Shown: positions 3,111-21,146 of the stretch, piece by piece | How positions within the stretch are numbered: position 1 is the first letter of the stretch | How the letters are laid out: every line of letters begins with the position of its first letter | Source of the DNA: Nitrospira japonica | GTDB taxonomy: Bacteria > Nitrospirota > Thermodesulfovibrionia > UBA6902 | Assembly (NCBI GenBank): GCA_020723105.1 | Contig: DYJL01000002.1 | Span: forward strand, 62,001-126,000 | Reading direction: 5' to 3' | DNA length: 64,000 bases | Program-made: the position numbers and the translations under genes | Notes under the pieces: model-generated | The model's database searches: none | What the model was told of the DNA's origin: nothing | What the model saw: the letters and a program-made list of their open reading frames with translations, nothing else

Positions 3111-3112
3111 GG

Positions 3113-4663: not shown

Positions 4664-5014
4664 CTAACGAGGGCCTCCGGTCAGGTGAAAACCTAGGAAG
4701 CTCAATCCGATCATTGCAATCATGCCTGGCCATGCATTTGCCTTCCATGCAAAGCCGATTAACGGAAATCCAGCGAGTCCTGCAATAAATCCCGCAACGC
4801 CCATTACAAACACATCGGCTTTGATAAAATTAATGTTGTAAAGTTTCTGGATCTCCGGATGCATATCATTGCTAATTGATTCTGGATTACCTATTGTTGC
4901 GAGTGCCGGATTAGCTACTAATGCATTTGTAAACCATCTTTTTGCCAAAGGTGTTACTGCTATTGAACTTAAGCCCCACATAATCAATGTACATATAAAG
5001 ATATTTGGTAACAT
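4664..5014 (-). CDS. Small membrane protein of unknown function
   Basis: The likely start is the ATG at 5014-5012, which follows a strong GGGAGGG ribosome site, giving 116 residues. A longer frame to 5047 lacks such a site. An N-terminal hydrophobic helix (MLPNIFICTLIMWGLSSIAV) and two C-terminal helices (DVFVMGVAGFIAGLAGFPL and a Gly/Ala-rich end) flank a polar middle with many Asn residues. It is co-oriented with and directly follows the 133-residue membrane gene, so both probably come from the sigma54 promoter at 5498-5512. I do not recognise the family. Confidence 0.6.
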   Translation of the reverse strand: MLPNIFICTLIMWGLSSIAVTPLAKRWFTNALVANPALATIGNPESISNDMHPEIQKLYNINFIKADVFVMGVAGFIAGLAGFPLIGFAWKANAWPGMIAMIGLSFLGFHLTGGPR

Positions 5015-5036
5015 GTTAATCCCTCCCCGTTGTTTT

Positions 5037-5438
5037 TTAAACAGCATTTTGATTTGTAATTGGTGCTTCTACGATTACATTTGCATTCTTTTGTTTTTCA
5101 GTTGTCGTTTGTTGTTCCAAATTTGTTGAAAAAGCCCTTTTAACATTTTTACTGAGGAGATATGTCAGGATAAGCGAGGCAACAATTAATGCAATTATAT
5201 TTCCCTCCGCTAATCCAACAATTCCGTTCAGGATATAGCCTGCTATTGCTGCCTTTCTTGCCCAAGACTTTAATCTGAATAACCCGATTCCAACTACAAC
5301 TGAAAAAAGACCTGATCCCAAAAGCAGAGCAACTCCAAATCCTGAAGTCACTCCAAATGAACTCAGCGTCAGTATTGCACCGACCACAATATTGACTACA
5401 CTGATCACTCCGATCATTACCGGCATTTTCTTTTTCAT
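5037..5438 (-). CDS. Four-helix membrane protein, first gene after a sigma54 promoter
   Basis: The 133-residue protein starts at an ATG preceded by AAAGGAGG. It has four predicted membrane helices in the first 100 residues, Gly/Val/Ile rich with short loops, then a polar tail. The layout recalls small stress-linked membrane proteins, but I cannot name a family. A perfect -24/-12 element lies 60 bp upstream and a regulator palindrome lies about 120 bp beyond it. That makes this gene a clear member of the putative regulon of the FHA-GAF-sigma54 activator. Confidence 0.7.
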   Translation of the reverse strand: MKKKMPVMIGVISVVNIVVGAILTLSSFGVTSGFGVALLLGSGLFSVVVGIGLFRLKSWARKAAIAGYILNGIVGLAEGNIIALIVASLILTYLLSKNVKRAFSTNLEQQTTTEKQKNANVIVEAPITNQNAV

Positions 5439-5497
5439 TACTCTATCCTCCTTTCAAAAATTTGTTTGTTTAAGGTTTGTTAATGAATAGGTATAGA

Positions 5498-5512
5498 GCA
5501 ACCGCTGTGCCA
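5498..5512 (-). promoter_or_regulatory. Sigma54 (-24/-12) promoter for the small membrane genes
   Basis: On the minus strand the sequence is TGGCAC-AGCGG-TTGC, an exact match to the sigma54 core consensus TGGCAC-N5-TTGC. Transcription would start near 5487, about 49 nt before the ATG at 5438. The palindrome at 5624-5640 is about 120 bp upstream, a usual enhancer distance for sigma54 activators. Confidence 0.85.
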
Positions 5513-5623: not shown

Positions 5624-5640
5624 CGTCTAATTTTTAGATG
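5624..5640. promoter_or_regulatory. Palindromic enhancer site 1 (CGTCTAA-TTT-TTAGATG)
   Basis: The two 7-bp arms are inverted repeats with one mismatch. The same motif recurs at 15284, 16311 and 18533, always next to this gene set. It is the probable binding site of the Fis-type helix-turn-helix of the activator encoded at 16321-18201. Confidence 0.75.
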
Positions 5641-5766: not shown

Positions 5767-8214
5767 TTAAATAATGCTAAAATGAATTTTCTCTGACACT
5801 ACTCCCACATTAATAATTTGTCCTGATTTCATATTCCCCTTAAGAATTAATGATGACAGTGGTTCAGAAATATGCTCATCAAAACATCTTTGTATCTCCC
5901 TTACTCCATTTGATCCGCTATAACCTTTTTGGAGCAGAAAGTTTAGTGCTTCATCCAATAAAACTATCTTGATGCCCCTTGATATCAGTCGTTTGTTTAA
6001 TTCACTAAGGATCTTCTCATCAATGATTTGTTTAACGCTTTCCAGACTGAGTGGATAAAATATTATTGTTTTCTGTATCCTATTCAAAAGCTCAGGCCTG
6101 AATGTACTGTTTATTGCCTGTCGAATACGATTTTCATAATCCTTCCACTTTTTACGATCATCCGGGATAATATGACTTTCCTTAATTGTTTTATCCTTCT
6201 GATCATTCAAATTTCGCTTACCAACATTAAAACCGATCTGTTTATTTATTAACCCCTGCACTGAACCGGGATAGTTCCCGAGATTTGATGTTAATATTAT
6301 TACACTCTCTGAAAAATTAACCCTTCTTCCATGTGAATCTGTTAGCCTTCCTTCTTCAAATATCTGAAGAAATAAATCAAAAACATCTGAATGGGCTTTC
6401 TCTATTTCATCAAAAAGAATAACTGAATATGGATATGTCCTGACCTTACCTGTAAGTTGTCCTTCCTCCTCATGCCCGATGTATCCCGGAGGTGAACCTA
6501 TTAATTTAGCGACAGAATGTTTCTCCTGATATTCAGACATATCAAATGCAATTAGACAGCTTTCATCATGCGACATGAATTCGGCAAGTGCTTTGGCAAG
6601 TTCAGTTTTGCCAGTCCCTGTTGAACCAGCAAGAAGGAATATCACAGGCTTGTTCGGATCTTTAAGGCCGGCCCTGGCAGACCGTATAGTATCTGATATT
6701 TCTTTTATGGCATAATCCTGTCCCTTTATCCGATGACACAAGTATTCCTCAATCTTTAATAATCTCTCTGTTTCGTCTGTTGTTAAACTATCAATCGATA
6801 TGCGACACCTTTCTGATACAACTCTTGCGACATCTTCTATTCTTAGTTCCTGTCTTCTATCATCAGCGTTTGCAGGGGAAAAGGATTGAAGCATTGTTTT
6901 TGCACATGCCTGATCTAAAATATCTATTGCCTTATCAGGAAGCCGGAAATCAGTAAGATATCTCATGGAAAGTTCTACTGCCTTTACTGTTACCTCATCA
7001 GGGATCTTAATCATATAATGATTCTCAAATCTCTGTTTAAGTCCTTTTAAAATAAGAATAGTCTCTTCTTTTGTCGGTTCATCTATCCAGATTATCTGAA
7101 ATCTCCGTTCTAAAGCAGCATCTTTTTCTATATATTTTCGGTATTCCGTAATTGTCGTTGCACCTATACATTTAATAGCCCCTTTGGCAAGAACAGGTTT
7201 CAAGATATTCCCTGCATCCAGTGCACCGCCTGCTGCACCTGCCCCTACGATTGTATGAATTTCATCAATAAACAAAACTATATTGGGATCCGAAGCCGCT
7301 TCCTTAAGCAAGGCGTCAAGTCTTTCTTCAAACTCTCCACGATATTTTGTACCTGCAATAAGCGAGCCCATATTAAGTTCAATTATCCTAAAATCTCTAA
7401 TTTGCGGCAACGCATCAGTCGCTGCTGCTTTTACTGCAAATCCCTCGACAATGTTGGTCTTACCAACACCTGACTCACCAATAAGAATAGGACTGTTCTT
7501 TTTCTTTTGTATAAGTGTCTGAGCAATTTTTTTGATCTCTGATGAGCGACCTATAGTAGGATCAAGTTTTCCATCTTTTGCTAATTGTGTTATATCTCTT
7601 CCCCATTTATCTATTAAAGGAGTTTTGGTTTTTAATGGTTGCTGTGAGTCCTTTTCCATCTGATTTTCTTCATGTGGTTTCTCTCCTGAAATAGTACTGT
7701 GATGGTCGTCCTCTTTTGACAAATTTTCTTCCAAGCCCGATAAAAGATCAATCCGTTCGGTGGATAGCTCTGAGAATAAAAGATCGAGGGAATGAGATTT
7801 CTGCCTTAATACTGACGAAAACAAGAGTTCAAGATTTATATTTGACGAACCTTTGTTTTTACAAAGACTATTAGCAATGGTAAATACCTCCCGGCATCGC
7901 GGCGTGCGATGGCCGGAAAAATCTCCCCTTTCAAATTCTGATTCATGAAGAATTTTTCTCAAACGTCTGCGCGCTTTTTTGGAATATACCCCTTTATCAG
8001 ATAAAAGGTCTTTAAATGACTGGATTTCTCTTCGAGCCAGCAACCATTCATTCTCTTTCAATGCAGGAATCGCACTGTTTTCAATTAACAGAATGTCTTC
8101 AATCTTAAAAAGCCCCAAAGCTAGGTGCTCTACATCAATATATTTACTGTGAAGCGCTTGAGCTTCACCTGAAGCAAGACTAAATGCTATCTGAGATGCA
8201 ATAGATACATTCAT
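5767..8214 (-). CDS. Clp-family AAA+ unfoldase with ClpP-docking-like loop, no long middle domain
   Basis: The preferred start is ATG at 8214 with TGAGG upstream (815 residues); the frame opens at a TTG seven codons earlier. The order is a Clp N domain (1-170), a charged linker, AAA1 with Walker A GESGVGKT near 246 and Walker B VLFIDEIH, then AAA2 with GSTGTGKTE and [10 protein letters not shown]. Between the two AAA modules only a few residues follow [15 protein letters not shown], so the coiled-coil middle domain of ClpB is absent. Near residue 660 the segment [10 protein letters not shown] aligns with the IGF/VGF loop by which ClpA and ClpC bind ClpP. It is probably an unfoldase that feeds a protease. 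It is the last gene of the kinase-led operon. Confidence 0.88.
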
Positions 8215-8293
8215 AATTAAAACCTCAAGTATCAAATTATCAGATGATGTTAATCTGCTATATCTGAAACAAATTGATTTTATTCCTCTCTAC

Positions 8294-9244
8294 TCATCTG
8301 ATTAATTCTGAAATCTTGATAATTACGCTTCTATTTCTATATTTACTGGTGTTTGGGTTATTGTTATATAATGAATTTTCTCCGACGCTGCTAACAAGAA
8401 ATGTTTTATATGGAAACGTAGTAGTTTTTCTCAGATGATCAACAACAACAGTAGCCCGTCTCATGCCTAAAGCGATGTTATCGATATAAGCAGAGCCAGT
8501 AGGAATCGGGACATTGTCAGTACATCCAACCACTTTTATAGAAATTTGCCCTGCATATGGTTCAAGTTTTTGCCCTAAAGTTGTGAGTAAAGTCTTCGCT
8601 TCAGGTTTCAATATGGTTTTACTGGAAAACAGACCCATATCAAACATTATTGTGATTTCATCACCTGTTGCTATGACAGAAGTCCCCGGAACTTTAATTG
8701 CATCAGATGGAATACCCAACTTTGCTAATGCCATATTTTTATTTTTTTGCACGGAATTTATATTAGCGATCTCTGCCATAATAGATTTATGCTGATTGTC
8801 AAAATATTCTTTCATGGCAAAACCAATGATTACTACGCATAACAATAAAACGAATCCGGTAATAAATGGTGTCAGATAGCTCATCCATACCGGACGACTT
8901 TGCATTTTTGCTATGAGCTGCAATCCTCTCCTGTATGATTCGTTGGTCGGATCCATTTCTGAAGCTTCCATCCACAATTTTTCTGCCTCAGCAAGCCTCC
9001 CTTGCTGAGCATTAATGCGTGCAAGAAGGTCTAAGAAAGCTGGTGTAGCCCCCCCCTTCACTTCTTTTAAGAGCCTCTGAGCTTCTGAATATTTGCCTTC
9101 TCTGGCCAGTCTCGTCGATTGCACTAAAAGAGATTCATTTATCATAGAAATGATAGAATTATTATCATTTGAATGCTGTATATTAGTTGTATTGAAAAGA
9201 TTAATTGTTTGGTCGTATGAAGTTTTCATTATCCTCCCATTCAT
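8294..9244 (-). CDS. TPR - membrane helix - OmpA/MotB-type peptidoglycan-binding protein
   Basis: The 316-residue protein has an N-terminal cytoplasmic part with TPR-like helices (residues 35-115, including EGKYSEAQRLLKEV and GRLAEAEKLWMEA). One membrane helix follows at about 124-143. The C-terminal OmpA-like domain (195-316) has the KVVGCTDNVPI and NRSVIIKI motifs that bind peptidoglycan. This would anchor the chaperone machinery at the inner membrane and reach the cell wall. It starts 8 bp after the Hsp70 gene, so the two are co-translated. A second ATG at 9229 follows GGGAGG but only 3 nt away. Confidence 0.8.
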   Translation of the reverse strand: MNGRIMKTSYDQTINLFNTTNIQHSNDNNSIISMINESLLVQSTRLAREGKYSEAQRLLKEVKGGATPAFLDLLARINAQQGRLAEAEKLWMEASEMDPTNESYRRGLQLIAKMQSRPVWMSYLTPFITGFVLLLCVVIIGFAMKEYFDNQHKSIMAEIANINSVQKNKNMALAKLGIPSDAIKVPGTSVIATGDEITIMFDMGLFSSKTILKPEAKTLLTTLGQKLEPYAGQISIKVVGCTDNVPIPTGSAYIDNIALGMRRATVVVDHLRKTTTFPYKTFLVSSVGENSLYNNNPNTSKYRNRSVIIKISELIR

Positions 9245-9252
9245 TAATATTT

Positions 9253-11736
9253 TTACCGAATAACAGTGCTTTCATCAGGAGCCTTCGGCGGATTTGGCAA
9301 GAGAGCTGCAAGCTGTCTGTTAACAGCTTTCAGTCCCTGATAGTCATTATTGTTTATTGCCCTCTGTCCCTGTGCTATTAATTGATCCGCTTGAGACTGA
9401 TCACGCATCTTTGATTTGTCCTCGCAAAGATTCTGATAATAATAAATATGTAAGACTCCCTTCTGATCCAGAACGCGTAGTGATAATCCTCTCAGCTCAC
9501 TAATACGATGCCTTAGCAGATCGGTATCATTAGTATTCATAGCAGCCATTATCTCTTTTTCATATCTTTCAAGATTCTGCTTATCAGTAGAATTTCCGCT
9601 TTCATTAACAATCGATTTTGCATTGTTTAATGCACTTTTTGCATCCTCCAACAGTGCTGGCCATTCCAATGCATCTTCAACCTCATCCAGAGTAACCTTC
9701 AGATCAAGAAGACGGTTCTTGCATTTGTCTCCAGCATCACGATCTCCCTTTGATGCTGCAAATGCGGTATCAATGTCATGAACTATTCGTTCAGAATCAA
9801 TCTTCTGAAGCAGATGTTTTCCTCTCGGATCATCTATACTTTCCATCTTCTTTCTGGCATCTTCGAGACGTTTCTTTTCTCGCTCAATTTCTTTAAGAAG
9901 ATTTTCAGGGTCAGCTTTATCAAACATCATTTTTAAAACGTCTTCATATTCTTCATCAAGAATCGGGATATACGCCTTTACTCTTACTAATCGCGACTGA
10001 TCAATTTCTATCGTAACTTCAACATCGCTGCCGGCAGGGACATTGCGTTTGACCTGATGGGCCTTGACCTCGAGGCTTCCAATCCGCATATTGCGGTCCG
10101 CCCTCCAGTTCAGTCCTTCCATTACGGGAATCCTGATGACATCTCCGCTTTGACCTTGTATCAGTTGGCTGACAGTCCTGAATATTTCTCGTTTACGCAC
10201 TGGCAACGAAGTTCCCTTTTCCATAAACCATGCCATTTCGTTATTAGCCAGTGCGACACCTACATGATGCGTCAGAGGTGCAGCTGTTATTACCATCCCG
10301 ATTGTATAACTGAAGCGGTCAGGATCTGTTTTACATTTTGTTCCCTTGGCATCGCAGAGCTCAATGATAAAAGTGTTAATACGACCCTTCTCTGCCCAAA
10401 GATTTGTCATAAAACTTCCGTTGGGCGACAGCCCGAGTTTGCCGCTCCGCCACTCCGGTCTTGCGTCAGCATGAACGAATTCGATTGTAAAACCGGAAAA
10501 ATCTACTCCATTGGACGTCAGGATTTTTCCGCCCACAAGCGGTTCGGTATCAGTTCCGACGGGCTTATAATCCAGATCTATAGCATATTCTCCGGATGAT
10601 AAAGGTTGCTGAACGGTATGTTCGTTCCTTTGCGTGCCTGCGAAAATGGCTGCCCCTCTTGCCACAACAGTCAACGGGTCAACGTTAAATTCAAGCGGGA
10701 TTCCAAGCCCTTCTTTACTGTCAGCCAGATGTTCTTTTAAATAAGGTGCCAGCGTCGGACCGCCTACGAGTAACACTTTTTCAATGTTACCGATTCCCAA
10801 TCTTTTTTCATTCAAGACTTTTTTGCAAATATTTACTGAACGCAGAATGAATGGCTCGGCAAGTCTTTTAACATCAGCCTTTTTTAGCTCGTATTCAAAT
10901 GAAATCGGAGATCCTTTATCATCATTACACAGAAAATCTTCTATAATCTCTGCTGAATCATCACGCGATACCCTTATTTTGGCCTTTTCAGCTGCGAGTT
11001 TCAGTTTGTTTATAGCCCCTTTCCATTTGGGGTTGCTTCGATTGAAATCCGAGACGCGGTGCTCACGTACCACGGCAGGTATCAGCAATTGCTCCACGAT
11101 CTCCCAGTCAATCAGTTTCCCGCCAAGGTGGTTATCGCCGCCGTGATTAACAACCTGTATGACTCCATCCCGTACTTGGATTACAGCAGCATCGAATGTC
11201 CCGCCCCCTAAATCATAAACTAACCAGAAAACGTTGTCGCTTTCGCTTTGAAAACCGTATGCCATTGCTGCAGCTACAGGCTCCTGCAAAAGAGGACTTG
11301 ATGTGAATCCCGCCAGATGTGCGGCCTTTTTTGTTGCCTCACACTGTGGCAATTGAAACGCAGCCGGGACAGTTATGACCGCACTCATAACGTTTTCGTT
11401 TCTACGTTGTTTCACATCGTTTTTCAGCGCTTTTAATACTTCCGCCGATAATTCCTCGGATTTCATGCGGCATCCGTTTCTTTTGAATATCTTTTCCTCA
11501 CCTGTCCCCATCTGCAACTTAAATTCGCTGAACGCATTTTCATCGTCGTCTCCCAGACGTTCTTTAGCGCGTCTGCCTACATGTATACTTTCCTTTTTAT
11601 CAAGCCACACAGCAGAAGGTGTACATTCAAAATCTTCATTATTTTTAAAGATCTCGACATTTGTTCCATTCAGTAAAGCAATCGTGCTGTTAGTGGTACC
11701 GAGGTCAATACCGTAATCAATTGTTAATCTTTTCAT
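9253..11736 (-). CDS. Divergent Hsp70 (DnaK-like) chaperone with long inserted and C-terminal regions
   Basis: The ATPase domain is intact: GIDLGTTNS (residue 9), a VYDLGGGTFD phosphate-2 loop near 173 and VLLVGGPT near 318. At 827 residues it is about 190 longer than housekeeping DnaK. After the ATPase domain (about 375) come 110 or so residues resembling a beta-sandwich insert (YAIDLDYKPVGTDTEPLVGG onward), then a substrate-domain-like stretch. A long charged helical tail (620-827) replaces the usual lid and EEVD-like end. Ribosome site GGGAGA precedes the ATG. It sits between a GrpE-like and an OmpA gene, so it is probably a dedicated chaperone with its own cofactors. Confidence 0.88.
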   Translation of the reverse strand: MKRLTIDYGIDLGTTNSTIALLNGTNVEIFKNNEDFECTPSAVWLDKKESIHVGRRAKERLGDDDENAFSEFKLQMGTGEEKIFKRNGCRMKSEELSAEVLKALKNDVKQRRNENVMSAVITVPAAFQLPQCEATKKAAHLAGFTSSPLLQEPVAAAMAYGFQSESDNVFWLVYDLGGGTFDAAVIQVRDGVIQVVNHGGDNHLGGKLIDWEIVEQLLIPAVVREHRVSDFNRSNPKWKGAINKLKLAAEKAKIRVSRDDSAEIIEDFLCNDDKGSPISFEYELKKADVKRLAEPFILRSVNICKKVLNEKRLGIGNIEKVLLVGGPTLAPYLKEHLADSKEGLGIPLEFNVDPLTVVARGAAIFAGTQRNEHTVQQPLSSGEYAIDLDYKPVGTDTEPLVGGKILTSNGVDFSGFTIEFVHADARPEWRSGKLGLSPNGSFMTNLWAEKGRINTFIIELCDAKGTKCKTDPDRFSYTIGMVITAAPLTHHVGVALANNEMAWFMEKGTSLPVRKREIFRTVSQLIQGQSGDVIRIPVMEGLNWRADRNMRIGSLEVKAHQVKRNVPAGSDVEVTIEIDQSRLVRVKAYIPILDEEYEDVLKMMFDKADPENLLKEIEREKKRLEDARKKMESIDDPRGKHLLQKIDSERIVHDIDTAFAASKGDRDAGDKCKNRLLDLKVTLDEVEDALEWPALLEDAKSALNNAKSIVNESGNSTDKQNLERYEKEIMAAMNTNDTDLLRHRISELRGLSLRVLDQKGVLHIYYYQNLCEDKSKMRDQSQADQLIAQGQRAINNNDYQGLKAVNRQLAALLPNPPKAPDESTVIR

Positions 11737-11767
11737 TTATAGGATCTCCCTTCTTGTTTAAATTTGT

Positions 11768-12274
11768 TTATGATTGATGAGTACTTTCAAGTTTTTCCTC
11801 AGTTTTTTCCGGGGTACCGACTATAACTTCACCCATTTGAATCGACTCGTTCTTATAGTAAATTGAAGGTTTGATCGTCTCTATCACCTTTTCACGTCCA
11901 ATTCCAGGCGTGGGTTGAAAAGCAATTACCTTGAGAGACAGCCCTGAGTCAAATAGCTTTCCGGTATGTTCCTGGATCTCAAATCCTGCCTGTATCAGTG
12001 CATCCCAGACAGACTGCAAATGACGGTATGCCCTGCGCATTTCCTCCAGCGGACGGTCTGTTCCCATCTGTAACATTTTCTGCCTTAAACGCCACAATCC
12101 TGTACATACATCAGCAAAAAAACTTAAATTTTCTTTCATGATATTTGGTGATTCGAGTGTGTTTTCCGGAAGAGTCATCAGTTTCTCAAAAACCGATAAC
12201 AACTCAGGAGGCCATTCATAAGGTGCAATCCTAAATTCCTCTGGATACATCAGTTGTCTAACACTTGCAATCAT
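11768..12274 (-). CDS. GrpE-like nucleotide exchange factor
   Basis: The 168-residue product has a helical first half and a C-terminal part (ALIQAGFEIQEHTGKLFDSG, then VIETIKPSIYYKNESIQMGEVIVG) that follows the GrpE pattern of a Gly-X-X-hydrophobic turn, beta wing and final VxV-type strand. Classical GrpE is about 190 residues with a long N-terminal helix, which is shorter here. It lies directly upstream of the DnaK-like gene, exactly where an exchange factor is expected. Similarity is weak at the residue level and the call leans on context. Confidence 0.7.
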   Translation of the reverse strand: MIASVRQLMYPEEFRIAPYEWPPELLSVFEKLMTLPENTLESPNIMKENLSFFADVCTGLWRLRQKMLQMGTDRPLEEMRRAYRHLQSVWDALIQAGFEIQEHTGKLFDSGLSLKVIAFQPTPGIGREKVIETIKPSIYYKNESIQMGEVIVGTPEKTEEKLESTHQS

Positions 12275-12295
12275 TATTCTAACCTCACTTTTAAA

Positions 12296-13921
12296 TTATT
12301 GAGTATTGGGGCGTTCACCGAATGCCCATCCTTCTTTTAATTTCGATTGAATAAGCGGAAAGTTATTCTTCTTTGATTCCGATAAAGAATTTGTATTGTT
12401 TTTAATAAAATTTTTACGGATTAGAAAATTGGCAAGTAGCCCAGTTGTAATGGACAGGGCAGCAATAGATAAGAAGTAATGACCATTATACGCATCGTCA
12501 ATTTCCATATTCATAAACTCTAGAATAGAACTTATAACATTATCGTAGAGAAACAGAGTAGCAATTATGGTTACTATACATATTGCAATAGCTATAGAGC
12601 GACGTGAGTGAATGGTTTTACATTCTGTACAGCGTGGTACTTTAATAGTTACATAATTCCAGACTGTCCGGGTCATATTATATCCAGCCCATTCCTTTCT
12701 AACATTGCCATGCATCTTCACCTCAATCCCTGCTGAGTCAACGCAGGTATTCTTCTTGCAAAACCAGCACGTTTTATACATCGAATGATACTCAATATTG
12801 CTTTTGAAAATCTCAATGTTTTGTTCAATTCGGCTCCGAGCCGTATCGGTTACTGCAATTGAGTGAACTCGATTGAGGAATTCAAGTGACTTACTCCAGT
12901 CACTTGTTTTATTCCCAAAAACTATTTCACATGAAAGCGCGCAGATTGCCACTTCATCATGAGATCCATCCCGTGTAGGATTACCTGCCGGTAATAAACA
13001 ATCCATAATAGCTAACACAGGTTCTACCTGCTCCAATAAATGTCTGCCTACCTTATCAGCATTCTCCGCGTCAGCACTTGAATCAGTATCTGCAACTTTA
13101 CATAAAGCCTTTACGCGCTCCCTTATGTGTTCAAGCGCCTTTCTGTTGGCTTCGTCAATAACATTTTGTCCAAAACCCGATTCCTGCATTATCTTCATAT
13201 GACGCTTGGCTTCCTCAAATTCACCAAGTTCTGCAAACCGTACTGCTAATTTGGCATTTATTGAAAGCAGCACCAGCGGCAGATTCATTCTCATACGACG
13301 GGCCATGCCAGTGGTTAAACGAGGGTCGTTTAACTCACGGATTCTCCCGGTCAGCCTGCTCCAGAACACTTCCTCCTCCAATAAAACTTTCCATCGTTTA
13401 AATGCGTCTTGCCAATATTTATCCCGATGCTTCTTCTCACTTTCTGCAAGCTTCTGTGAAAAGGATGTATTTTCCAAATCAAGCGCATCCATATGTGACA
13501 AAACAGCAAGGTTATGGATCGAAACATTGGTGTTACTGGATTTAGCACGCGTTGTCCATATTTCCGTAGCTTTTTTCATGTCACACTTTGTAAGCGCAAT
13601 CAGAGCCTCATCCGTTCTGCTCTGCCCAAGATTCTGAGGCCAAAACCAGAAAAACTCATCCAGTATCCGATGCTCCGGATCCCTTAAGCGCTGCATCGCT
13701 GCACGAATGGCATCTTCATTATATATTCCCCCATCCGGCTGTGAACCATTGCCGTATTTCTGCATCATTTTGAGTTTCTCAACCTGTCGAGCCATTTCTC
13801 TCTCTGTCGCATCTACAGGTACGCCGGCAATTCGGAAAGCATTTGATAGATAAATATCAGGGGTCGCTGATGCTATAAATACTTCAGTTTCTATTTGCGG
13901 ATTCTCAGATATATTACTCAT
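12296..13921 (-). CDS. Degenerate J-domain-like protein with Cys-pair motif and two membrane helices
   Basis: The first 90 residues (DIYLSNAFRIAGVPVDATEREM ... RDPEHRILDEFFWFWP, quoted in part) match the pattern of a J-related domain family that starts with NAFR-type and ends with a DEFFWFWP-type motif. No HPD motif is present, so stimulation of Hsp70 ATPase in the classical way is doubtful. A helical middle with TPR character follows (120-370). A CWFCKKNTC / CTECK pair (about 395-445) could bind zinc, and two hydrophobic helices lie at about 450-470 and 485-510. The gene follows the kinase and precedes grpE-like. It probably brings the Hsp70 to the membrane. Confidence 0.7.
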   Translation of the reverse strand: MSNISENPQIETEVFIASATPDIYLSNAFRIAGVPVDATEREMARQVEKLKMMQKYGNGSQPDGGIYNEDAIRAAMQRLRDPEHRILDEFFWFWPQNLGQSRTDEALIALTKCDMKKATEIWTTRAKSSNTNVSIHNLAVLSHMDALDLENTSFSQKLAESEKKHRDKYWQDAFKRWKVLLEEEVFWSRLTGRIRELNDPRLTTGMARRMRMNLPLVLLSINAKLAVRFAELGEFEEAKRHMKIMQESGFGQNVIDEANRKALEHIRERVKALCKVADTDSSADAENADKVGRHLLEQVEPVLAIMDCLLPAGNPTRDGSHDEVAICALSCEIVFGNKTSDWSKSLEFLNRVHSIAVTDTARSRIEQNIEIFKSNIEYHSMYKTCWFCKKNTCVDSAGIEVKMHGNVRKEWAGYNMTRTVWNYVTIKVPRCTECKTIHSRRSIAIAICIVTIIATLFLYDNVISSILEFMNMEIDDAYNGHYFLSIAALSITTGLLANFLIRKNFIKNNTNSLSESKKNNFPLIQSKLKEGWAFGERPNTQ

Positions 13922-13957
13922 CCCGTTTCCCTCCTCTAAAAATATATTTTAACTTGT

Positions 13958-15064
13958 TCACATTGCTATCCCACGACGCCAAAGCTTAAGTTGATATTCA
14001 TACTGTTTGCGAAGACCCGGACTTTTATTAAATGCTTCTTCCATAAGATCCGCTGCCTCAGCCAGCTTGCCTATCTGGAGAGAAAGCTTAAGTGCTTTGT
14101 CTGCCATTTTACGAGCTTTAGCTTCGTCGACAGGGGTATGTATACCCAATGCACTTTTAGACATCTCAGATGAAATAGTGTTTTTCGATATTGCTGAAGA
14201 ACCTGCTGTAAAAGGTTTCCACCCATTCAGATCAGCAAGAAATTCTTTAGCAGAAGGATAGCGGTCCTCTGGTTTCAGTGCTAATGCTTGGAATAATATC
14301 TGATCCAGCAGTGGATTGACTCGTATATTCAAACAACTTGGTGGGATCAAGGGCCGTTCAAAGCATTGGCCAACTATTACATCAATAGCATCAGATTCAG
14401 AGAAAGGAAACCTGTCAGTAAGAAGTAAATAAAGCGTGGCTCCAAGCGCCCATACATCTCCTGCGCAAGAGTCGCTCCGGAAATCACGAAATGTTTCCGG
14501 CGCCTTAAAACAGCGTGTGCCTCTGGCACTCGCCAATAGAGTTAAAGGATTTACTCTCTTAGCAAGACCAAAATCGCTTATACGCACACGGAGTCCGTCA
14601 GCATCGTAACCAGCTAATATATTTTGTGGTTTTATATCACGATGAATTATTGGAGGGCTCTCTCCATGCGCAATAACAAGTCCTCTGCAGACTTGCCTGA
14701 TAATTTCAACAGATGTCTCAACCGGAACTAATTGTGAACCATGTGACCGCCAGAACTGCTCCAAACTTCCTCCGGCTACATATTCCATGGTGAAGAAGCC
14801 ACATGTTCCCTTGGAAGTTTCTATGGTATTTGCGTCATAAACCCTGATAATATTTGGATGGCCAATTTGCGAGAGCATAATAGCTTCACCAAGCATTTGT
14901 TCGGTTTCTTCAATAGTCATTCCAGCCATTTTAAAGACCTTCATGGCTTGACGTCCAAGAAAACGATGTTTTACTCGGTAAACTTCAGCAAAAGCCCCTT
15001 CACCAATAAGTCGCTCGACTTCATAAGTCCCACGAATTAATTGTCCTTCTTTTATCAAGCCCAT
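13958..15064 (-). CDS. Hanks-type Ser/Thr protein kinase (PknB/PpkA-like), cytoplasmic
   Basis: All kinase landmarks are present: GEGAFAEVY glycine loop, AMKVF lysine, HRDIKPQN catalytic loop, DFGLAK and the KAPE anchor. The chosen start is ATG at 15064, with GGAGG at 15073-15077; the open frame extends two codons further to a TTG. After the kinase domain (about 280 residues) comes a short linker and a helical pair (LSLQIGKLAEAADLMEEAF). There is no membrane helix. As first gene of the chaperone operon, with a PP2C phosphatase and an FHA protein next door, it is likely the signalling input for the whole locus. Confidence 0.93.
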   Translation of the reverse strand: MGLIKEGQLIRGTYEVERLIGEGAFAEVYRVKHRFLGRQAMKVFKMAGMTIEETEQMLGEAIMLSQIGHPNIIRVYDANTIETSKGTCGFFTMEYVAGGSLEQFWRSHGSQLVPVETSVEIIRQVCRGLVIAHGESPPIIHRDIKPQNILAGYDADGLRVRISDFGLAKRVNPLTLLASARGTRCFKAPETFRDFRSDSCAGDVWALGATLYLLLTDRFPFSESDAIDVIVGQCFERPLIPPSCLNIRVNPLLDQILFQALALKPEDRYPSAKEFLADLNGWKPFTAGSSAISKNTISSEMSKSALGIHTPVDEAKARKMADKALKLSLQIGKLAEAADLMEEAFNKSPGLRKQYEYQLKLWRRGIAM

Positions 15065-15206
15065 GAACAATGCCTCCGAACGTTTTGTAGGATAAATATC
15101 TTAATAAAAAGAGGATGAAAAGTAAATTTAATTTTAATATTTCGATTATTAATTAACATGTTCTTATATTCATGTGATCTTATGCATTTTGATTAACAAC
15201 TGTTTA

Positions 15207-15221
15207 TCAAATAACATGCCA
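15207..15221 (-). promoter_or_regulatory. Probable sigma54 promoter of the kinase-chaperone operon
   Basis: On the minus strand TGGCAT-GTTAT-TTGA keeps the -24 GG and the spacing but has A instead of C in the -12 GC. The palindrome at 15284-15300 is about 72 bp upstream and the start codon about 130 nt downstream of the predicted start point. It is the weakest of the four promoters. Confidence 0.45.
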
Positions 15222-15455: not shown

Positions 15456-16187
15456 TTAATATAGTTGCCTAATGACAATTACTGTTATATTATCTTCTCC
15501 CCCTGCTTCGTTTGCCTGTTGAATTAAGCGCATGCATATTTCTTCAGAACTGTTTCCACTTATAACAATAGTCTGGATTTCATCTTCTGATAGCATATCC
15601 CAGAGTCCATCACTGCATAGCATAACAACATCATCTTTATGCAATATGTATCTACTATATTCTGGTACGATGGTATAAGGAGAGCCAAGCGCTTGGGTCA
15701 GTTGATTTTTAAATTGACTTGATAGAGCTTCATCCTTTGACATTTTTCCTGTTTCTATCAAAGCTGTTACGACAGAGTGGTCTTTAGTAATTTGTGTAAT
15801 AGAGGAACGATTAATCACATAAACACGAGAATCTCCAATGTGACATGTATGCAGTATGTTTTCCTGAATTAAACATAAAACGATAGTACACCCCATGCCA
15901 CTGTATTCAGTTCTTTTCATGCTTATATTCAGAATTTCCTGATTCGCTTTAATAACTGAGGTGACCAGTTCTTTCTTAATTATTTTATGATTCATATGGA
16001 GCTCTTTGTTATTGAAGTAATTCTCCAGTGTCTTTATGGCATTCCGGCTAGCAATCTCTCCTGCATTATGACCTCCCATCCCGTCCGAAATGATATATAT
16101 ATGTTTATCTGGGAGTAAAAGAAAAGCATCCTCATTACTATCCCTTCTCAGACCTACATTGGTTGTACCGTATACTGATTCGTTCAT
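15456..16187 (-). CDS. PP2C-type Ser/Thr protein phosphatase
   Basis: The 243-residue protein shows the full metal-binding set: RRDSNEDAF near the start, SDGMGGHNAGE, HIGDSRVYV, CSDGLWDML and the final GGEDNITVIV. It is a soluble single-domain PppA/Stp1-like enzyme and would reverse the action of the neighbouring kinase. It has its own -24/-12 element and enhancer site upstream, giving a leader of about 26 nt. No strong ribosome site is visible before its ATG. Confidence 0.95.
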   Translation of the reverse strand: MNESVYGTTNVGLRRDSNEDAFLLLPDKHIYIISDGMGGHNAGEIASRNAIKTLENYFNNKELHMNHKIIKKELVTSVIKANQEILNISMKRTEYSGMGCTIVLCLIQENILHTCHIGDSRVYVINRSSITQITKDHSVVTALIETGKMSKDEALSSQFKNQLTQALGSPYTIVPEYSRYILHKDDVVMLCSDGLWDMLSEDEIQTIVISGNSSEEICMRLIQQANEAGGEDNITVIVIRQLY

Positions 16188-16223
16188 ATATTTTTGCGAA
16201 CAATATTACAATGTTATTTTAAA

Positions 16224-16238
16224 GCAATTATGATACCA
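16224..16238 (-). promoter_or_regulatory. Sigma54 promoter of the phosphatase gene
   Basis: On the minus strand TGGTAT-CATAA-TTGC has the essential -24 GG, -12 GC and exact spacing. The palindrome at 16311-16327 is centred about 82 bp upstream. A partial extra site (AGTCTAA at 16247-16253) lies in between. Confidence 0.65.
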
Positions 16239-16310: not shown

Positions 16311-16327
16311 TGTCTAAATATTAGACA
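16311..16327. promoter_or_regulatory. Palindromic enhancer site 3 (TGTCTAA-ATA-TTAGACA), overlapping the activator stop codon
   Basis: Both 7-bp arms are perfectly symmetric. The right arm includes the TAA stop of the activator gene (16323-16321), so the regulator gene carries an operator for its downstream neighbour in its last codons. Confidence 0.78.
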
Positions 16328-18201
16328 CCTAAACCCTCAAAGCCCGATATCCTGTGTTCTTTCCCCTTATTATAGAGAGTTTGTTTTGAGATGCATAGTA
16401 TTTTTGCAGCTTTTTCCTTATTCCCACGAGTATGTTCAAGGACTCTGATAATATATTCTTTTTCGATATCAACAAGTGATTTGAGATTTTCTAATAGGCT
16501 ACTATTTAATTGAATAGCATCAGGCGTTATAACTGAATCCTCGGAATAGACTATAGCTCTTTTTATGACAGTTTGGAGTTCTCTTATATTGTCAGGCCAT
16601 TCATATTGAGAAAGTAAATCTATGCTCTTATTTGAGAGTCGACTAATTCTTTTGCCAAAATTTGGTCTTTCCTTGAAAAGGAAATAGCCTGCAAGAAGCG
16701 GTATATCATCTTTCCTGTCCCTGAGAGGAGGCATATTAAATCTGAATACATTTAGTCGTGCATACAGATCGTGTCTGAATTTGCCTTCCTTAACTGCTTG
16801 TTCCAGATTGCAATTGGTGGCTGCAATGATTCTGATATCAAGAGGAATGGGTTCTTTACCTCCTAATGGCCAGATAATTTTTTCCTCTAAGGCATTCAAT
16901 AGTTTGGCCTGATGTTCTTTACTAAGATCACCTATTTCATCCAGAAAAAGAGTTCCTTCGTTAGCGAGTCTAAACTTTCCTGTCTTTTTTTCTAATGCAC
17001 CTGTAAATGATCCTTTCTCATGACCAAACATTTCTGATTCAAGAAGATTTTCAGGTATTGCAGAACAATTGATCATAATAAATGGTTTGTCTTTTCTTAT
17101 AGAATTCTGATGCACTGCCTTTGCAAGTTGCCCCTTTCCTGTACCAGTTTCACCAGTTATTAAAACAGTTACATCCATATTAATAATTCTAAGTATATCG
17201 TTCATTATCTCTCTCATCCTCGAAGAGATTCCAATAACTGCAGTCTCTAACTCGAGTCTTTTCTCAAGATTAAGTTTTTCATTCCTTAACGATTCATACG
17301 ACTTGACTCTGCTCATGAATGACGATATATCATCACCTATCAAAGAAAAAAGACTTAAATCTTTTTCTGTAAACAACCCCTTTTCTTTTAGACTATCCAT
17401 ATACAATAGGCCTTTGATCTCATTATCCCATTTAAGCGGAATACATACTACGGATTTTATCTTCACTTCAAGGATGCTTTTCGCTGTCTTCCAATCTATC
17501 TTGAATTTTTCGTCACTGACAGCATCTTCGATTATCATTACCTTTTTATTATCAAAAAAATATTTTAATATGGTTCTGCTTATTTTTAAGTCGGTATTCT
17601 CTCTGGGTGCTTGTGCTAAACAGATAATGTTGTCCTGAGCATTCTCAAATGATGCAATAAATATCCTGTCAGTGTTAAAGGTCCTATGGAGTTCTTCAAC
17701 AATTAGTTGTAATGATACCTCGAAATTAAGATTGAGGTTTGTAATATGAGTCAATTTATATAAAAGAGATAGTTTAACAGGCTCATCTTTGTATTCTTCA
17801 ATAGCCTGAAGCTCAACAGAAGGGGGAGAAAAAATGGTTTTCATACTATTACTTTTATTTTTATCTGTCAATGCAATATTGTTTTTCTTAACTGTATCTA
17901 CTGAAGTCTCTTCCTGGAAAACTAAAACATAATCTCCAATTTCTATGCTATCTTTGTCGTTTAACTTGCCATAATCACATTTTTTTCCGTTAAGGTAAGT
18001 GTTATTTTGACTACCAAGATCTTGTAGAAAATAGTTGCCATCAGTATCACAAAAAATTGCAGCATGAAATCTTGATATCTTAAGTGCAGGGTCTGGAAGA
18101 CAAATATCGTTTAACTTATGCCTTCCTATTGATATTGCTTTTTGTAAGTTTATATTGTAACTAGTTATGAGCTCAGTTCTTTTCTTAACTAATATGTGCA
18201 T
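16321..18201 (-). CDS. FHA-GAF-sigma54 transcription activator (bacterial enhancer-binding protein)
   Basis: From the ATG at 18201 the protein is 626 residues; a TTG six codons earlier also opens the frame. The FHA domain (1-98) shows GRH, SRFHA and NNTYLNG, the phosphothreonine-binding residues. A GAF domain spans about 145-300. The AAA+ domain has GETGTGKG (about 348), GSFTGA (the sigma54-contact GAFTGA loop with Ser for Ala) and LFLDEIGDL. A Fis-type helix-turn-helix (EKAAKILCISKQTLYNKGKEHRI) closes it. FHA binding to kinase targets would link phosphorylation to transcription. The four palindromes around it are its likely sites. Confidence 0.93.
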   Translation of the reverse strand: MHILVKKRTELITSYNINLQKAISIGRHKLNDICLPDPALKISRFHAAIFCDTDGNYFLQDLGSQNNTYLNGKKCDYGKLNDKDSIEIGDYVLVFQEETSVDTVKKNNIALTDKNKSNSMKTIFSPPSVELQAIEEYKDEPVKLSLLYKLTHITNLNLNFEVSLQLIVEELHRTFNTDRIFIASFENAQDNIICLAQAPRENTDLKISRTILKYFFDNKKVMIIEDAVSDEKFKIDWKTAKSILEVKIKSVVCIPLKWDNEIKGLLYMDSLKEKGLFTEKDLSLFSLIGDDISSFMSRVKSYESLRNEKLNLEKRLELETAVIGISSRMREIMNDILRIINMDVTVLITGETGTGKGQLAKAVHQNSIRKDKPFIMINCSAIPENLLESEMFGHEKGSFTGALEKKTGKFRLANEGTLFLDEIGDLSKEHQAKLLNALEEKIIWPLGGKEPIPLDIRIIAATNCNLEQAVKEGKFRHDLYARLNVFRFNMPPLRDRKDDIPLLAGYFLFKERPNFGKRISRLSNKSIDLLSQYEWPDNIRELQTVIKRAIVYSEDSVITPDAIQLNSSLLENLKSLVDIEKEYIIRVLEHTRGNKEKAAKILCISKQTLYNKGKEHRISGFEGLGV

Positions 18202-18532
18202 AACTGGAATTATGATCAATTAATTTTCAAGATAAAGTAATTTTTTTTACCAAAATAGAAGTCGAATTGATTTATTACTATTGTGTTTTCTCCTAACTAA
18301 GAAACACAGCATGAGAAAAATACCATTTTCTGAGTAAAAAGAACTTCACGCATGTAAGTATATCCAATTCAATGATTATTGGGCAAGAAAATAATTTTTA
18401 TGTGTCAAGCCAAATTTAAAATGTCTGATAGCTTCTAAAAAAAAACGTTTTCCGTCTCTTTTGTCGCTCTCGTAATCACTTTGCCGCCTCTGGAATGCTT
18501 AATTCTTCATCCATTTTTTTAGCTTGCCTCAT

Positions 18533-18549
18533 CGTCTAACATTTAGACG
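18533..18549. promoter_or_regulatory. Palindromic enhancer site 4 (CGTCTAA-CAT-TTAGACG)
   Basis: This is the most symmetric copy: the arms extend to 9 bp each (ATCGTCTAA and TTAGACGAT, 18531-18551). It is centred about 130 bp before the plus-strand -24 element and could also act on the activator gene. Confidence 0.8.
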
Positions 18550-18669: not shown

Positions 18670-18684
18670 TGGCACATAGGTTGC
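18670..18684 (+). promoter_or_regulatory. Sigma54 promoter of the protease transcript
   Basis: TGGCAC-ATAGG-TTGC followed by A is an exact match to the sigma54 consensus. Transcription would begin near 18696, about 38 nt before the first ribosome site and ATG at 18734. Confidence 0.88.
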
Positions 18685-18733
18685 AATAGTCAGGCTATAA
18701 ATCAATTAACCTTCAGGAAAGGAGGGGAAAAAG

Positions 18734-18992
18734 ATGTTAATGATTCTTGAGATAGTACTTACCATCAGGACGTGGAGAAATGGATGGGGAAAGCTATAAT
18801 CTTTGTCGCGATTTTTTTAGGATCGGCTTTTTTGCTTGGCTGATAATAGTGATGTCAGGCATGACAGTTGCCGATAAAAGTTTTTTTGTAATTAGGGACA
18901 TCTTGTTTGTAAGTACTCAATCAATACTTACATCAAAGGCACCGAGGCAGACGAAGGTTTATAAGACAGTAGAAATACTCTGTTATCAATAA
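18734..18992 (+). pseudogene. Broken small membrane protein gene (two frame changes)
   Basis: A very strong ribosome site (AAAGGAGGGG) precedes ATG 18734, which opens MLMILEIVLTIRTWRNGWGK and then stops. The hydrophobic continuation AIIFVAIFLGSAFLLG is in the next frame, and LIIVMSGMTVADKSFFVIRD in the third, ending at 18992. Read with one base added in the GGGGAAAG run and one near TTTTTTGCTTGGC, it becomes a single protein of about 86 residues. It resembles small membrane proteins that begin with a LEIVLTI-x-W-RNGWG-like segment. Either this is a decayed gene or the assembly has two missing bases. Confidence 0.5.
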
Positions 18993-19048: not shown

Positions 19049-21085
19049 ATGAAAAAAATAACCATTTTGTTTACATGGCTGATAATGACAATCGTCATTA
19101 TATTTTCACATGAAGTTGCGGCCAAAGAGCTTGCAGGTAAAATAGCCTCAATTAACCTTGGCACATCACATCCTTATACAAGTGTAAATGCCGGTGAAAT
19201 AATTGAGTCCTTTAAAATTAGCAACCCGGGAGCAGGATTTATTATCGTTCATTTCACAGGCTTTTCCATCAATGCTGAAGACTATGTTGAGATAAGAGAT
19301 GCAAACGGCGCATTAAGACAGACTATAACTAATGATAATCCCGGCAAGACAGACTTCTGGGCCTTTGCGGTTGACGGTGATACAGTATTTGTAAACCTGA
19401 TCTCAGGTGACGCTATTGGTCAGGCTTACGGTTTTGATATTGACCAGTATAGTTTTGGGATTTCTTCTTCCCAAAAATACGGGTCCTCTTCTCTGGTAAT
19501 TGAGAATTTATGTGGCAGCGATAATCTTGTAAATATTAATTGTATGACCGGCACCACCCAATATGATCGTGCCAGGAGTGTGGGACGCATATATTATCAG
19601 GATCCGAACGATGGAGACTGGTATTATTGCACAGGAGCTTTAATCTCCGGTCAAAATCATTTTCTTACCAATGAACATTGTATTAACAGCCAGGCTGCTG
19701 TTGATACAATGCAGGTTCGTTTCAATTATCAATATAATACCTGCAACGGTACAGCCATGGAGACTTACAAAACATTTTATGGTGATAACTATCTTGTATC
19801 TAATTATACTTATGACTTCTCCCTTGTGACTCTTGCTGGAAATCCGCAGGCCACTTACGGTTATCTGGAACTTGATTCCAGGGATGTTGTGTTAAATGAG
19901 TCCGTTTATATCCCTCAGCACCCTAATGGAGAGCCAATGAAATTGGATAGCGGACCGGTTGTTGATACTGCTATTGACGGCAACGCATCAAATAGCGATT
20001 TCGGTCATCGTGTTGACACCGAGGGAGGAAGTTCCGGCGCTCCGGTATTATCAATGAACAACCATAAAGTTGTAGGCTTACACCACTGGGGTGGGTGTAA
20101 CTATACTGGTGGAGAAAATCAGGCTGTACTTATAAAAAATATCTACCCATACATTGAATCTTATCTGACAGGTACTGTTGGGAACGTAACAAACCTGATA
20201 CAAAACTATGATTTTGAAAACGGAGATATGGGTTGGGTTGATCATGCCAATTTTTCTACGCCAAATATCACGAATAATTCACAAATTGCCTACGGAGGAA
20301 ACTGGTCAGCATATTTAGGCGGCTATAATAGTGCAAACGGTTATATATATCAGGATATAACTATAGCATCAAATATAACGCAGGCATATGTTCAGTTCTA
20401 CTACGAAATCATTTCAACCGAAACAACGACAACCAGTATATATGATAAGATGCGGGTTGAGATACTAAATCCTTCAGACAATACACTTTTGTCAACCTTG
20501 CTCACATTAAGTAATCTTGATGAAACTACAAATGATATAGTAAATCAGAAAAATTGGGTCTTAAGTCAAAAATATGATGTGTCGGCATTCAAGGGGCAAA
20601 CAATAAGATTGAGATTTTATGCTACAACTGACAGTTCAAATGCTACGGGGTTCCTTATAGATGACATATATCTTATGACAGATACCGATTGTACTAATAC
20701 ATATTGCTATCCACCTGACTTAACCATGACAGCATTAACTTTCACTCCTGCAAAAGTTGTCAGAGGCAAGAGCGTTACAGTCACATCTGTAACGGAAAAT
20801 CGTGGTAACGGTGTTGCAGGTGCCTCCGTGACACGTTATTATCTTTCAGCCAATAAGAAAAAAAATAATAAAGATATTCTGCTTATTAACAGCAGTGCTG
20901 TGCAGGTACTAAATGCAGCAGCAAGTTCATTCTTGACAACATCAGTTACAATCCCTGCAAATACACGTACCGGCAGCTACTATATGATCGCTTGTGCAGA
21001 TGATACGAAACAGGTATCGGAGAGTAATGAAAATAATAACTGCAAGATATCAAAGAAAAAAATAAAGGTAAAGAAAAAGAAATAA
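19049..21085 (+). CDS. Secreted trypsin-like serine protease with CARDB domain
   Basis: A signal peptide (MKKITILFTWLIMTIVIIFS, cleaved after VAA) leads a 678-residue protein. An N-terminal beta domain (about 30-130) is followed by the protease with LTNEHC (His), YDFSLVTL (Asp) and GGSSGAPVL (Ser), a complete triad. A MAM/carbohydrate-binding-like beta domain starts at NLIQNYDFENGDMGW, and a C-terminal CARDB domain (about 555-665) ends in a Lys-rich tail. AGAAGGAGAA gives a good ribosome site. It is the only exported enzyme in the sigma54 regulon and may remove damaged envelope proteins or act outside the cell. Confidence 0.9.
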   Translation: MKKITILFTWLIMTIVIIFSHEVAAKELAGKIASINLGTSHPYTSVNAGEIIESFKISNPGAGFIIVHFTGFSINAEDYVEIRDANGALRQTITNDNPGKTDFWAFAVDGDTVFVNLISGDAIGQAYGFDIDQYSFGISSSQKYGSSSLVIENLCGSDNLVNINCMTGTTQYDRARSVGRIYYQDPNDGDWYYCTGALISGQNHFLTNEHCINSQAAVDTMQVRFNYQYNTCNGTAMETYKTFYGDNYLVSNYTYDFSLVTLAGNPQATYGYLELDSRDVVLNESVYIPQHPNGEPMKLDSGPVVDTAIDGNASNSDFGHRVDTEGGSSGAPVLSMNNHKVVGLHHWGGCNYTGGENQAVLIKNIYPYIESYLTGTVGNVTNLIQNYDFENGDMGWVDHANFSTPNITNNSQIAYGGNWSAYLGGYNSANGYIYQDITIASNITQAYVQFYYEIISTETTTTSIYDKMRVEILNPSDNTLLSTLLTLSNLDETTNDIVNQKNWVLSQKYDVSAFKGQTIRLRFYATTDSSNATGFLIDDIYLMTDTDCTNTYCYPPDLTMTALTFTPAKVVRGKSVTVTSVTENRGNGVAGASVTRYYLSANKKKNNKDILLINSSAVQVLNAAASSFLTTSVTIPANTRTGSYYMIACADDTKQVSESNENNNCKISKKKIKVKKKK

Positions 21086-21108: not shown

Positions 21109-21146
21109 AAAGCAGAACCCACGGGTAAGCCCGTGGGTTCTGCTTT
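21109..21146. terminator. Perfect hairpin terminator between convergent transcripts
   Basis: A 17-bp perfect inverted repeat AAAGCAGAACCCACGGG with a 4-nt loop (TAAG) ends in TTT. It lies between the protease stop and the minus-strand coiled-coil gene, and can serve both directions. Confidence 0.85.

What the first reader, a model, noticed from the sequence alone, without database searches (positions are those of the whole stretch)
19049..21085. Exported trypsin-like protease in a cytoplasmic-chaperone regulon
The only predicted exported enzyme of the locus shares promoter class and enhancer motif with the Hsp70/Clp operon. This couples cytoplasmic folding control with an external or envelope protease.
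Basis: inference. Interest (0 to 1): 0.5.

Follow-up and report, generated by a model that had tools for sequence, protein, structure and literature searches.

The report
Secreted protease in a chaperone regulon
A bacterium seems to have placed a secreted protein-cutting enzyme under the same genetic switch as a set of protein-folding helpers, but relatives of the folding-helper genes have no such enzyme next to them, so the link looks local and recent rather than a general rule.

Summary
The gene is real: a 678-aa exported S1 (trypsin/lysyl-endopeptidase-like) protease with conserved His210, Asp256 and Ser329, and a CARDB tail. Upstream lie an exact sigma-54 promoter (18670) and an exact enhancer palindrome, GTCTAA-N3-TTAGAC (18534). 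That palindrome occurs exactly three times in the 3.13-Mb genome, all within 3.3 kb of this locus; the other two precede the PP2C gene and the kinase-Hsp70-Clp operon. The shared enhancer is confirmed; the sigma-54 box of the Hsp70 operon itself is weak. Four further near-exact enhancer sites with good sigma-54 boxes exist, one in this window and three on contig C57, in a second cluster (TerY-type vWA, PP2C, kinases, GAP1-N2). These units begin with small membrane-protein genes. The protease's leader holds the frameshifted remains of such a gene. The Hsp70 module recurs at 36 loci in many phyla; none shows a protease in the DNA held. No protease relative examined has this promoter. Best reading: a lineage-specific secreted protease behind a captured promoter of an FHA-activator/sigma-54 stress or conflict regulon. 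Functional coupling of cytoplasmic folding with external proteolysis is not supported; expression was not tested.

The parts
18534..18548 (+). Enhancer palindrome GTCTAACATTTAGAC of the protease unit
   Evidence: Exact match; only 3 exact copies in the 3.13-Mb genome, all in this locus
18670..18685 (+). Sigma-54 promoter TGGCACATAGGTTGCA
   Evidence: Exact consensus; one of two exact in the window and 8 in the genome
18734..18974 (+). Frameshifted remains of an m89-type small membrane-protein gene in the protease leader (end approximate)
   Evidence: tblastn to the intact 89-aa homologue on C57: residues 1-18 61%, 30-81 28% in another frame; 0 of 500 shuffles and 0 of 696 control stretches score as high
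19049..21085 (+). Exported S1 (trypsin/lysyl-endopeptidase-like) serine protease, 678 aa; S1 domain about 19619-20107, MAM-like stretch, CARDB about 20714-21046
   Evidence: Pfam; lysyl endopeptidase 9omd_A 2.3e-9; triad residues conserved
21109..21146 (.). 17-bp perfect hairpin between the protease and the convergent genes, likely transcript end
   Evidence: -32.4 kcal/mol, z -7.8; no long T run follows
16321..18219 (-). FHA-GAF-AAA+(sigma-54)-Fis HTH activator (ORF as listed from TTG; first ATG at 18201), presumed to bind the palindrome
   Evidence: Pfam; the binding itself is inferred from proximity
16312..16326 (.). Enhancer palindrome at the activator stop codon, upstream of PP2C
   Evidence: Exact
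16223..16238 (-). Weak sigma-54-like box TGGTATCATAATTGCT before PP2C
   Evidence: 2 mismatches, keeps GG and GC
15456..16187 (-). PP2C Ser/Thr phosphatase (Stp1/IreP type)
   Evidence: NCBIfam NF033484 249.8 bits over cut-off 230; paralogue at 77% on C57
15285..15299 (.). Enhancer palindrome upstream of the kinase-Hsp70-Clp operon
   Evidence: Exact
15206..15221 (-). Poor sigma-54-like box TGGCATGTTATTTGAT before the kinase operon
   Evidence: 2 mismatches, GA instead of GC at -12
13958..15064 (-). Ser/Thr protein kinase, first gene of the operon
   Evidence: Pkinase 4.4e-42
12296..13921 (-). 541-aa conserved protein, no Pfam family; N-terminus looks J-domain-like by eye only
   Evidence: relatives at 36 loci
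11768..12274 (-). GrpE-like nucleotide exchange factor, 168 aa
   Evidence: 6 of 21 family members match Pfam GrpE; model pLDDT 89.5, the 13 best fold matches are all GrpE entries
9253..11736 (-). Hsp70 (DnaK-like), 827 aa
   Evidence: HSP70 4.3e-78
8294..9244 (-). TPR-OmpA protein
5767..8235 (-). ClpB/ClpA-type AAA+ protein
5625..5639 (.). Enhancer palindrome, 1 mismatch
5497..5512 (-). Exact sigma-54 promoter TGGCACAGCGGTTGCT
4664..5438 (-). Two small membrane-protein genes (133 and 127 aa)
   Evidence: paralogous unit with the same promoter layout on C57

Best explanation
The protease is a secreted S1-family enzyme transcribed by sigma-54 RNA polymerase. It belongs to a small regulon that an FHA-GAF-AAA+-Fis activator, most likely the one encoded next to it, switches on from GTCTAA-N3-TTAGAC enhancers. 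The activator's FHA domain would read phosphorylation set by the operon kinase and removed by the adjacent PP2C phosphatase. The same enhancers precede the kinase/541-aa protein/GrpE-like/Hsp70/Clp operon, PP2C, small membrane-protein genes, and a second cluster of TerY-type vWA, PP2C, kinase and GAP1-N2 genes. The protease joined this regulon in one lineage by lying downstream of a captured promoter whose original small membrane-protein gene has decayed. It is thus a lineage-specific secreted output of a stress or conflict response and not a conserved partner of the chaperones. Shown: the gene, its domains, the promoter and enhancer sequences, their rarity and pairing, the decayed leader gene, and the absence of a protease in the DNA held of related loci. 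Inferred: activator binding, phosphorylation control, transcription through the leader, secretion, and the stress or conflict role.
For: Enhancer exact 3 times in the genome, all within 3.3 kb; of 60 relatives only 2 have an exact match, one place each, both beside pilin-like ORFs. 5 of 9 enhancer sites with at most 1 mismatch have a sigma-54 box with at most 1 mismatch 113-156 bp away (positions also), against a genome count of 120 such boxes in 3.13 Mb; binomial 1.8e-6. rpoN present. Second cluster with paralogous PP2C (77%) and small membrane pair (76%, 85%) under the same promoter layout, with TerY_C, GAP1-N2 and FHA-sigma-54 activator domains. Decayed m89 gene directly after the protease promoter. 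Protease absent from the DNA held at 36 loci that carry the operon protein. Protease relatives without this promoter, 0 of 19 distinct.
Against: The protease start lies about 360 nt after the promoter, behind a dead gene. A sigma-70-like match in the leader (18773-18800, 10 of 12; such matches are somewhat above the shuffle mean in this region, 19 against 11.9 +/- 3.0) could drive it instead. Only one of the three exact enhancers has a good sigma-54 box; the kinase and PP2C boxes have 2 mismatches. Two FHA activators exist, 35% identical, so the cognate one is unknown. Short loci limit the absence claim: 22 of 36 hold at least 15 kb. No expression data.
Confidence: 0.6

Rival explanations
1. 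One reading: the protease and the Hsp70/Clp operon form one functional unit that couples cytoplasmic folding with envelope or external proteolysis.
For: Both have an exact copy of an enhancer otherwise absent from the genome. The Hsp70 operon of Candidatus Magnetominusculus also has a 1-mismatch sigma-54 box before its kinase. The C57 unit with intact m89 is followed further downstream by another short ORF with a signal-like start and a CPHC motif, which hints at an envelope arm.
Against: No protease at any of 36 loci with the operon protein; poor sigma-54 box before the Hsp70 operon in this genome; protease behind a decayed gene; a hairpin seen by eye separates m89 from the CPHC ORF, and that ORF matches no Pfam family.
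Confidence: 0.15
2. The protease is expressed independently from its own vegetative promoter in the leader; the sigma-54 site and enhancer are relics of the dead small membrane gene or serve only the locus's other units.
For: Dead gene between promoter and protease; a sigma-70-like match at 18773-18800; long leader with an inverted repeat.
Against: Enhancer and sigma-54 box are still exact although the gene behind them has decayed, which is easier to explain if they still serve the protease; the scan found no terminator between box and protease.
Confidence: 0.2
3. The locus is a type VI secretion accessory cluster (FHA, kinase, PP2C, Clp, OmpA, sigma-54 activator) and the protease is its cargo.
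For: Similar accessory genes are recalled (not from a call) for type VI clusters; the OmpA domain weakly matches the TssL model (41.4 against cut-off 139.8) and Clp matches the ClpV model (601 against cut-off 885).
Against: No VipB/TssC sheath gene in the whole genome, with the control ringing in E. coli; Clp scores higher as ClpB (711) than ClpV (601); Hsp70 and GrpE-like genes are not recalled as type VI parts.
Confidence: 0.02

Closest known systems
Lysyl-endopeptidase-like S1 proteases (secreted)
   Same: S1 domain with EGGSSG catalytic motif, conserved cysteines, signal-like N-terminus; best solved relative is lysyl endopeptidase 9omd_A
   Different: Different tail (MAM-like and CARDB); specificity pocket not tested; sigma-54/enhancer control not seen in 19 relatives
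Sigma-54 control of the cell exterior (Francke et al. 2011, PMC3162934; abstract and outline seen)
   Same: A sigma-54 unit drives an exported product and membrane proteins
   Different: Here the presumed activator is a FHA protein beside a kinase, PP2C and an Hsp70 operon
GAP1-N2 GTPase-centric conflict systems (Kaur et al. 2020, PMC7159879; passages seen)
   Same: That paper describes themes with HSP70 plus GrpE plus DnaJ, and with kinase plus PP2C plus standalone vWA; the C57 cluster has GAP1-N2, TerY-type vWA, PP2C and kinases with a zinc-ribbon-like end by eye
   Different: In this genome the Hsp70 operon is at a separate locus without GAP1-N2; both share one enhancer; trypsin-like proteins in the passages seen are parts of those systems, whereas this one has its own signal-like N-terminus and promoter
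TerY-P type stress modules (name recalled, not from a call)
   Same: TerY_C vWA proteins with PP2C and kinase on C57
   Different: Joined by motif to a sigma-54/FHA regulon that also reaches the Hsp70 locus

Membership tests
S1 serine proteases (trypsin/lysyl-endopeptidase-like) | Trypsin-like domain above Pfam cut-off | tested here: met
   Trypsin_2 59.6 bits over 27.6, Trypsin 42.3 over 20.6
S1 serine proteases (trypsin/lysyl-endopeptidase-like) | Catalytic His, Asp, Ser | tested here: met
   H210, D256, S329 invariant in 9 of 9 aligned; geometry not tested, the single-sequence model was poor (pLDDT 34)
S1 serine proteases (trypsin/lysyl-endopeptidase-like) | Lysine-specific S1 pocket of lysyl endopeptidase | not tested
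   No reliable model
Exported protein | Sec-type signal peptide | tested here: inconclusive
   Basic start, hydrophobic core mean hydropathy 2.50, VAA before the likely cut; no predictor available
Sigma-54-dependent transcription unit | -24/-12 box TGGCAC-N5-TTGCW | tested here: met
   Exact at 18670
Sigma-54-dependent transcription unit | Upstream activator site and an activator gene; rpoN in the genome | tested here: met
   that the activator binds the site is not tested
Same regulon as the Hsp70/Clp operon | Shared enhancer | tested here: met
   Exact at 15285 and 18534
Same regulon as the Hsp70/Clp operon | Shared sigma-54 promoter class | tested here: inconclusive
   Hsp70 operon box has 2 mismatches and no GC at -12
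Same regulon as the Hsp70/Clp operon | Co-expression | not testable with these tools
   No expression data
Conserved part of the Hsp70 module | Protease recurs at related loci | tested here: not met
   0 of 36 loci, mean 16.7 kb held each
Type VI secretion | VipB/TssC sheath protein in the genome | tested here: not met
   0 matches, control rings in E. coli

The most novel reading that the evidence does not exclude
A phosphorylation-read FHA/sigma-54 switch ties a chaperone trio (Hsp70, GrpE-like, putative J-like protein) plus Clp to a TerY/GAP1-N2 conflict cluster at a distant locus, and has recruited a secreted S1 protease as an envelope- or neighbour-directed effector, so that one signal arms both internal repair and external proteolysis.
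Probability: 0.2. Interest if true: 0.6.

Novelty: new variant of a known kind. Interest (0 to 1): 0.35.

Why it matters
The useful result is the regulon rather than the protease alone. A rare enhancer with sigma-54 boxes joins two separate clusters (Hsp70/GrpE-like/Clp with kinase and PP2C; TerY/GAP1-N2), which gives a testable control circuit for systems otherwise known mainly from gene neighbourhoods. The protease looks like a case of promoter capture: a dead small gene still stands between the promoter and the new cargo. It also warns against reading shared promoters as conserved functional coupling.

Tried and rejected
Tried without result: single-sequence fold of the protease (pLDDT 34.4, not used). 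Alignment of the regulon promoters gave no similarity beyond the motifs except for the paralogous membrane-gene pair. Pfam for the 541-aa protein and for the small membrane proteins gave nothing above cut-off. PADLOC gave only general kinase, AAA+ and similar matches, and none for the protease. Rfam found only three tRNAs in the window. Plasmid search gave distant relatives only, below 60% identity; several listed hits are annotated as trypsin-like or nonspecific endonuclease proteins.

Considered and rejected: type VI cluster; the sigma-54 box near the 2-mismatch enhancer at C2:95829 (lies inside an open frame); the 1-mismatch enhancers at C25:71771 and C62:14033 (no sigma-54 box within 350 bp; they are counted among the 9); the exact enhancers in two relatives (next to pilin-like ORFs).

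A mistake of mine: one search used a wrong position for the GC test in the sigma-54 scan, so its sigma-54 column is void; one search repeats it correctly for 16 of the 17 loci with a strong kinase match (L102 left out).

Full report
What is there. The ORF at 19049-21085 (+) is intact and encodes 678 residues. Pfam finds a trypsin-like domain, a MAM-like stretch of immune inhibitor A type, and a CARDB domain. The best solved relative by sequence is lysyl endopeptidase (2.3e-9). In an alignment of 9 proteins (own plus relatives from the phylum), His210, Asp256 and the GSSG around Ser329 are invariant. The first residues look like a Sec signal peptide, and no later stretch is hydrophobic enough for a membrane span (hydropathy only). 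A 17-bp hairpin follows the gene.

Control elements. The palindrome GTCTAA-N3-TTAGAC is exact at 15285, 16312 and 18534 and nowhere else in the 3.13-Mb genome; composition predicts 0.30 copies. Among 60 relatives, 2 have one exact copy each, both beside pilin-like ORFs. An exact sigma-54 box stands at 18670, 121 bp after the 18534 site; the only other exact box in the window, at 5512 (-), stands 112 bp from a 1-mismatch palindrome at 5625 and precedes two small membrane-protein genes. Allowing 1 mismatch, the genome has 9 palindromes; 5 of the 9 have a sigma-54 box with at most 1 mismatch within 350 bp, all oriented towards a downstream gene. The genome-wide count of such boxes is 120 (reversed-pattern control 30), so the pairing has a binomial probability of 1.8e-6. 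The sigma-54 factor gene is present. Next to the protease lies a gene for a FHA-GAF-AAA+-Fis activator. It is the natural candidate to bind the palindrome, but a second FHA activator on contig C57 is 35% identical, and binding was not tested.

The box before the kinase-Hsp70-Clp operon, TGGCATGTTATTTGAT, has 2 mismatches and lacks GC at -12; the PP2C box has 2 mismatches but keeps GG and GC. The enhancer is shared as a sequence; the promoter class is strong only for the protease and the small membrane pair.

The rest of the regulon. Three good enhancer/sigma-54 pairs lie on contig C57 at 162.8, 186.6 and 200.2 kb. That stretch holds several TerY-type vWA genes, kinases, PP2C, a FHA-sigma-54 activator and a GAP1-N2 protein, and ORFs that look like HEAT repeats by eye. 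One PP2C is 77% and the small membrane pair 76% and 85% identical to those in the window. The first ORF after each of the four intact strong pairs (window 5438, C57:162, C57:186, C57:200) is small with a hydrophobic, membrane-like product by eye.

The leader. Between the protease's promoter and its start codon lie the remains of such a small gene: from 18734 the first 18 residues match the 89-residue protein of C57:186 at 61%, and residues 30-81 match at 28% in another frame. The two best frames sum to 121, against at most 64 in 500 shuffles, and no stretch among 696 controls from the window reaches it. So the promoter once served a small membrane gene and the protease lies behind its remains. 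An assembly error could mimic a frameshift, but the divergence and the change of frame along the gene point to decay.

Is the coupling conserved? The 541-aa operon protein is missing from 60 relatives and found in 3 of 395 phylum genomes including this one. A scan of named genomes gave 36 loci across many groups, for example Candidatus Magnetominusculus, Accumulibacter, Actinomadura, Parafrankia and Chthoniobacter. By my count, Hsp70 is beside it in 28 of 36, the GrpE-like gene in 28, a strongly matching kinase in 17, the OmpA/TPR gene in 19, and Clp in 3 (one weak). Many loci are cut short: 22 of 36 hold at least 15 kb. A profile of the protease domain matched none of the ORFs in the 36 loci even at E 10, and the activator, PP2C and small membrane proteins matched none at E 1. 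Of 16 kinase-bearing loci, one (Magnetominusculus) has a 1-mismatch sigma-54 box before the kinase and one a 2-mismatch box. Conversely, relatives of the protease domain occur in 23 of 395 phylum genomes, own included; in 19 distinct relatives up to 600 bp upstream showed no sigma-54 box (at most 1 mismatch) and no palindrome (at most 2; start codons were guessed). In the 60 nearest relatives only the CARDB tail is common; the S1 part matched in one, at 30%.

Reading. The protease is best seen as a lineage-specific secreted output of an FHA-activator/sigma-54 regulon whose widespread core is a kinase-linked Hsp70/GrpE-like module. The GrpE assignment rests on 6 of 21 family members matching Pfam GrpE and on a good model (pLDDT 89.5) whose 13 best fold matches are GrpE entries. 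A stress or conflict role is inferred from published themes: HSP70 with GrpE and DnaJ, and kinase with PP2C and vWA, both in GAP1-N2 neighbourhoods (PMC7159879, passages seen). Sigma-54 control of the cell exterior is itself a published theme (PMC3162934, abstract and outline seen), so a secreted protease under sigma-54 is not strange. The claim that folding control and external proteolysis are coupled remains possible but unsupported.

Limits. No expression data, no binding data, no signal-peptide predictor, a poor protease model, and loci of limited length.

Noticed in passing
window 8294-15064 and loci L082-L117: A kinase / 541-aa (putatively J-like) / GrpE-like / Hsp70 / TPR-OmpA (sometimes Clp) module, with two parts that Pfam does not name in this genome, recurs sparsely across phyla including actinobacteria and a Methanothrix MAG.
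   Followed up: partly
L049-L051 (G000:C57 about 162-201 kb): A large cluster of TerY-type vWA, kinase, PP2C, FHA-sigma-54 activator, HEAT-like and GAP1-N2 genes carrying three copies of the same enhancer/sigma-54 layout.
   Followed up: partly
L050:17613-18017: A 135-aa ORF with a signal-like start and a CPHC motif downstream of the m89 unit; a hairpin seen by eye lies between them; no Pfam match.
   Followed up: partly
G000:C57:187211-187513 (L120): A third, decayed copy of the 127-aa small membrane gene with six stops, next to the intact m89 gene.
   Followed up: no
window 18908-18932: Inverted repeat TGTAAGTA-N9-TACTTACA in the protease leader; no T run, modest fold energy.
   Followed up: no
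window 223-4327: One radical-SAM protein (3113-4327) and two further ORFs that look like radical-SAM enzymes by eye, with higher GC (0.50-0.56) than the genes at 4664-15070 (0.37-0.44).
   Followed up: no
window 16324-18201: The activator has GSFTGA where the usual sigma-54 contact motif (recalled) is GAFTGA; the C57 activator has GAFTGA.
   Followed up: no
window 20714-21085: The CARDB tail is shared with many proteins of the genus (up to 57% identity), while the S1 domain is not, and it ends in a lysine-rich stretch not seen in the other tails looked at.
   Followed up: partly
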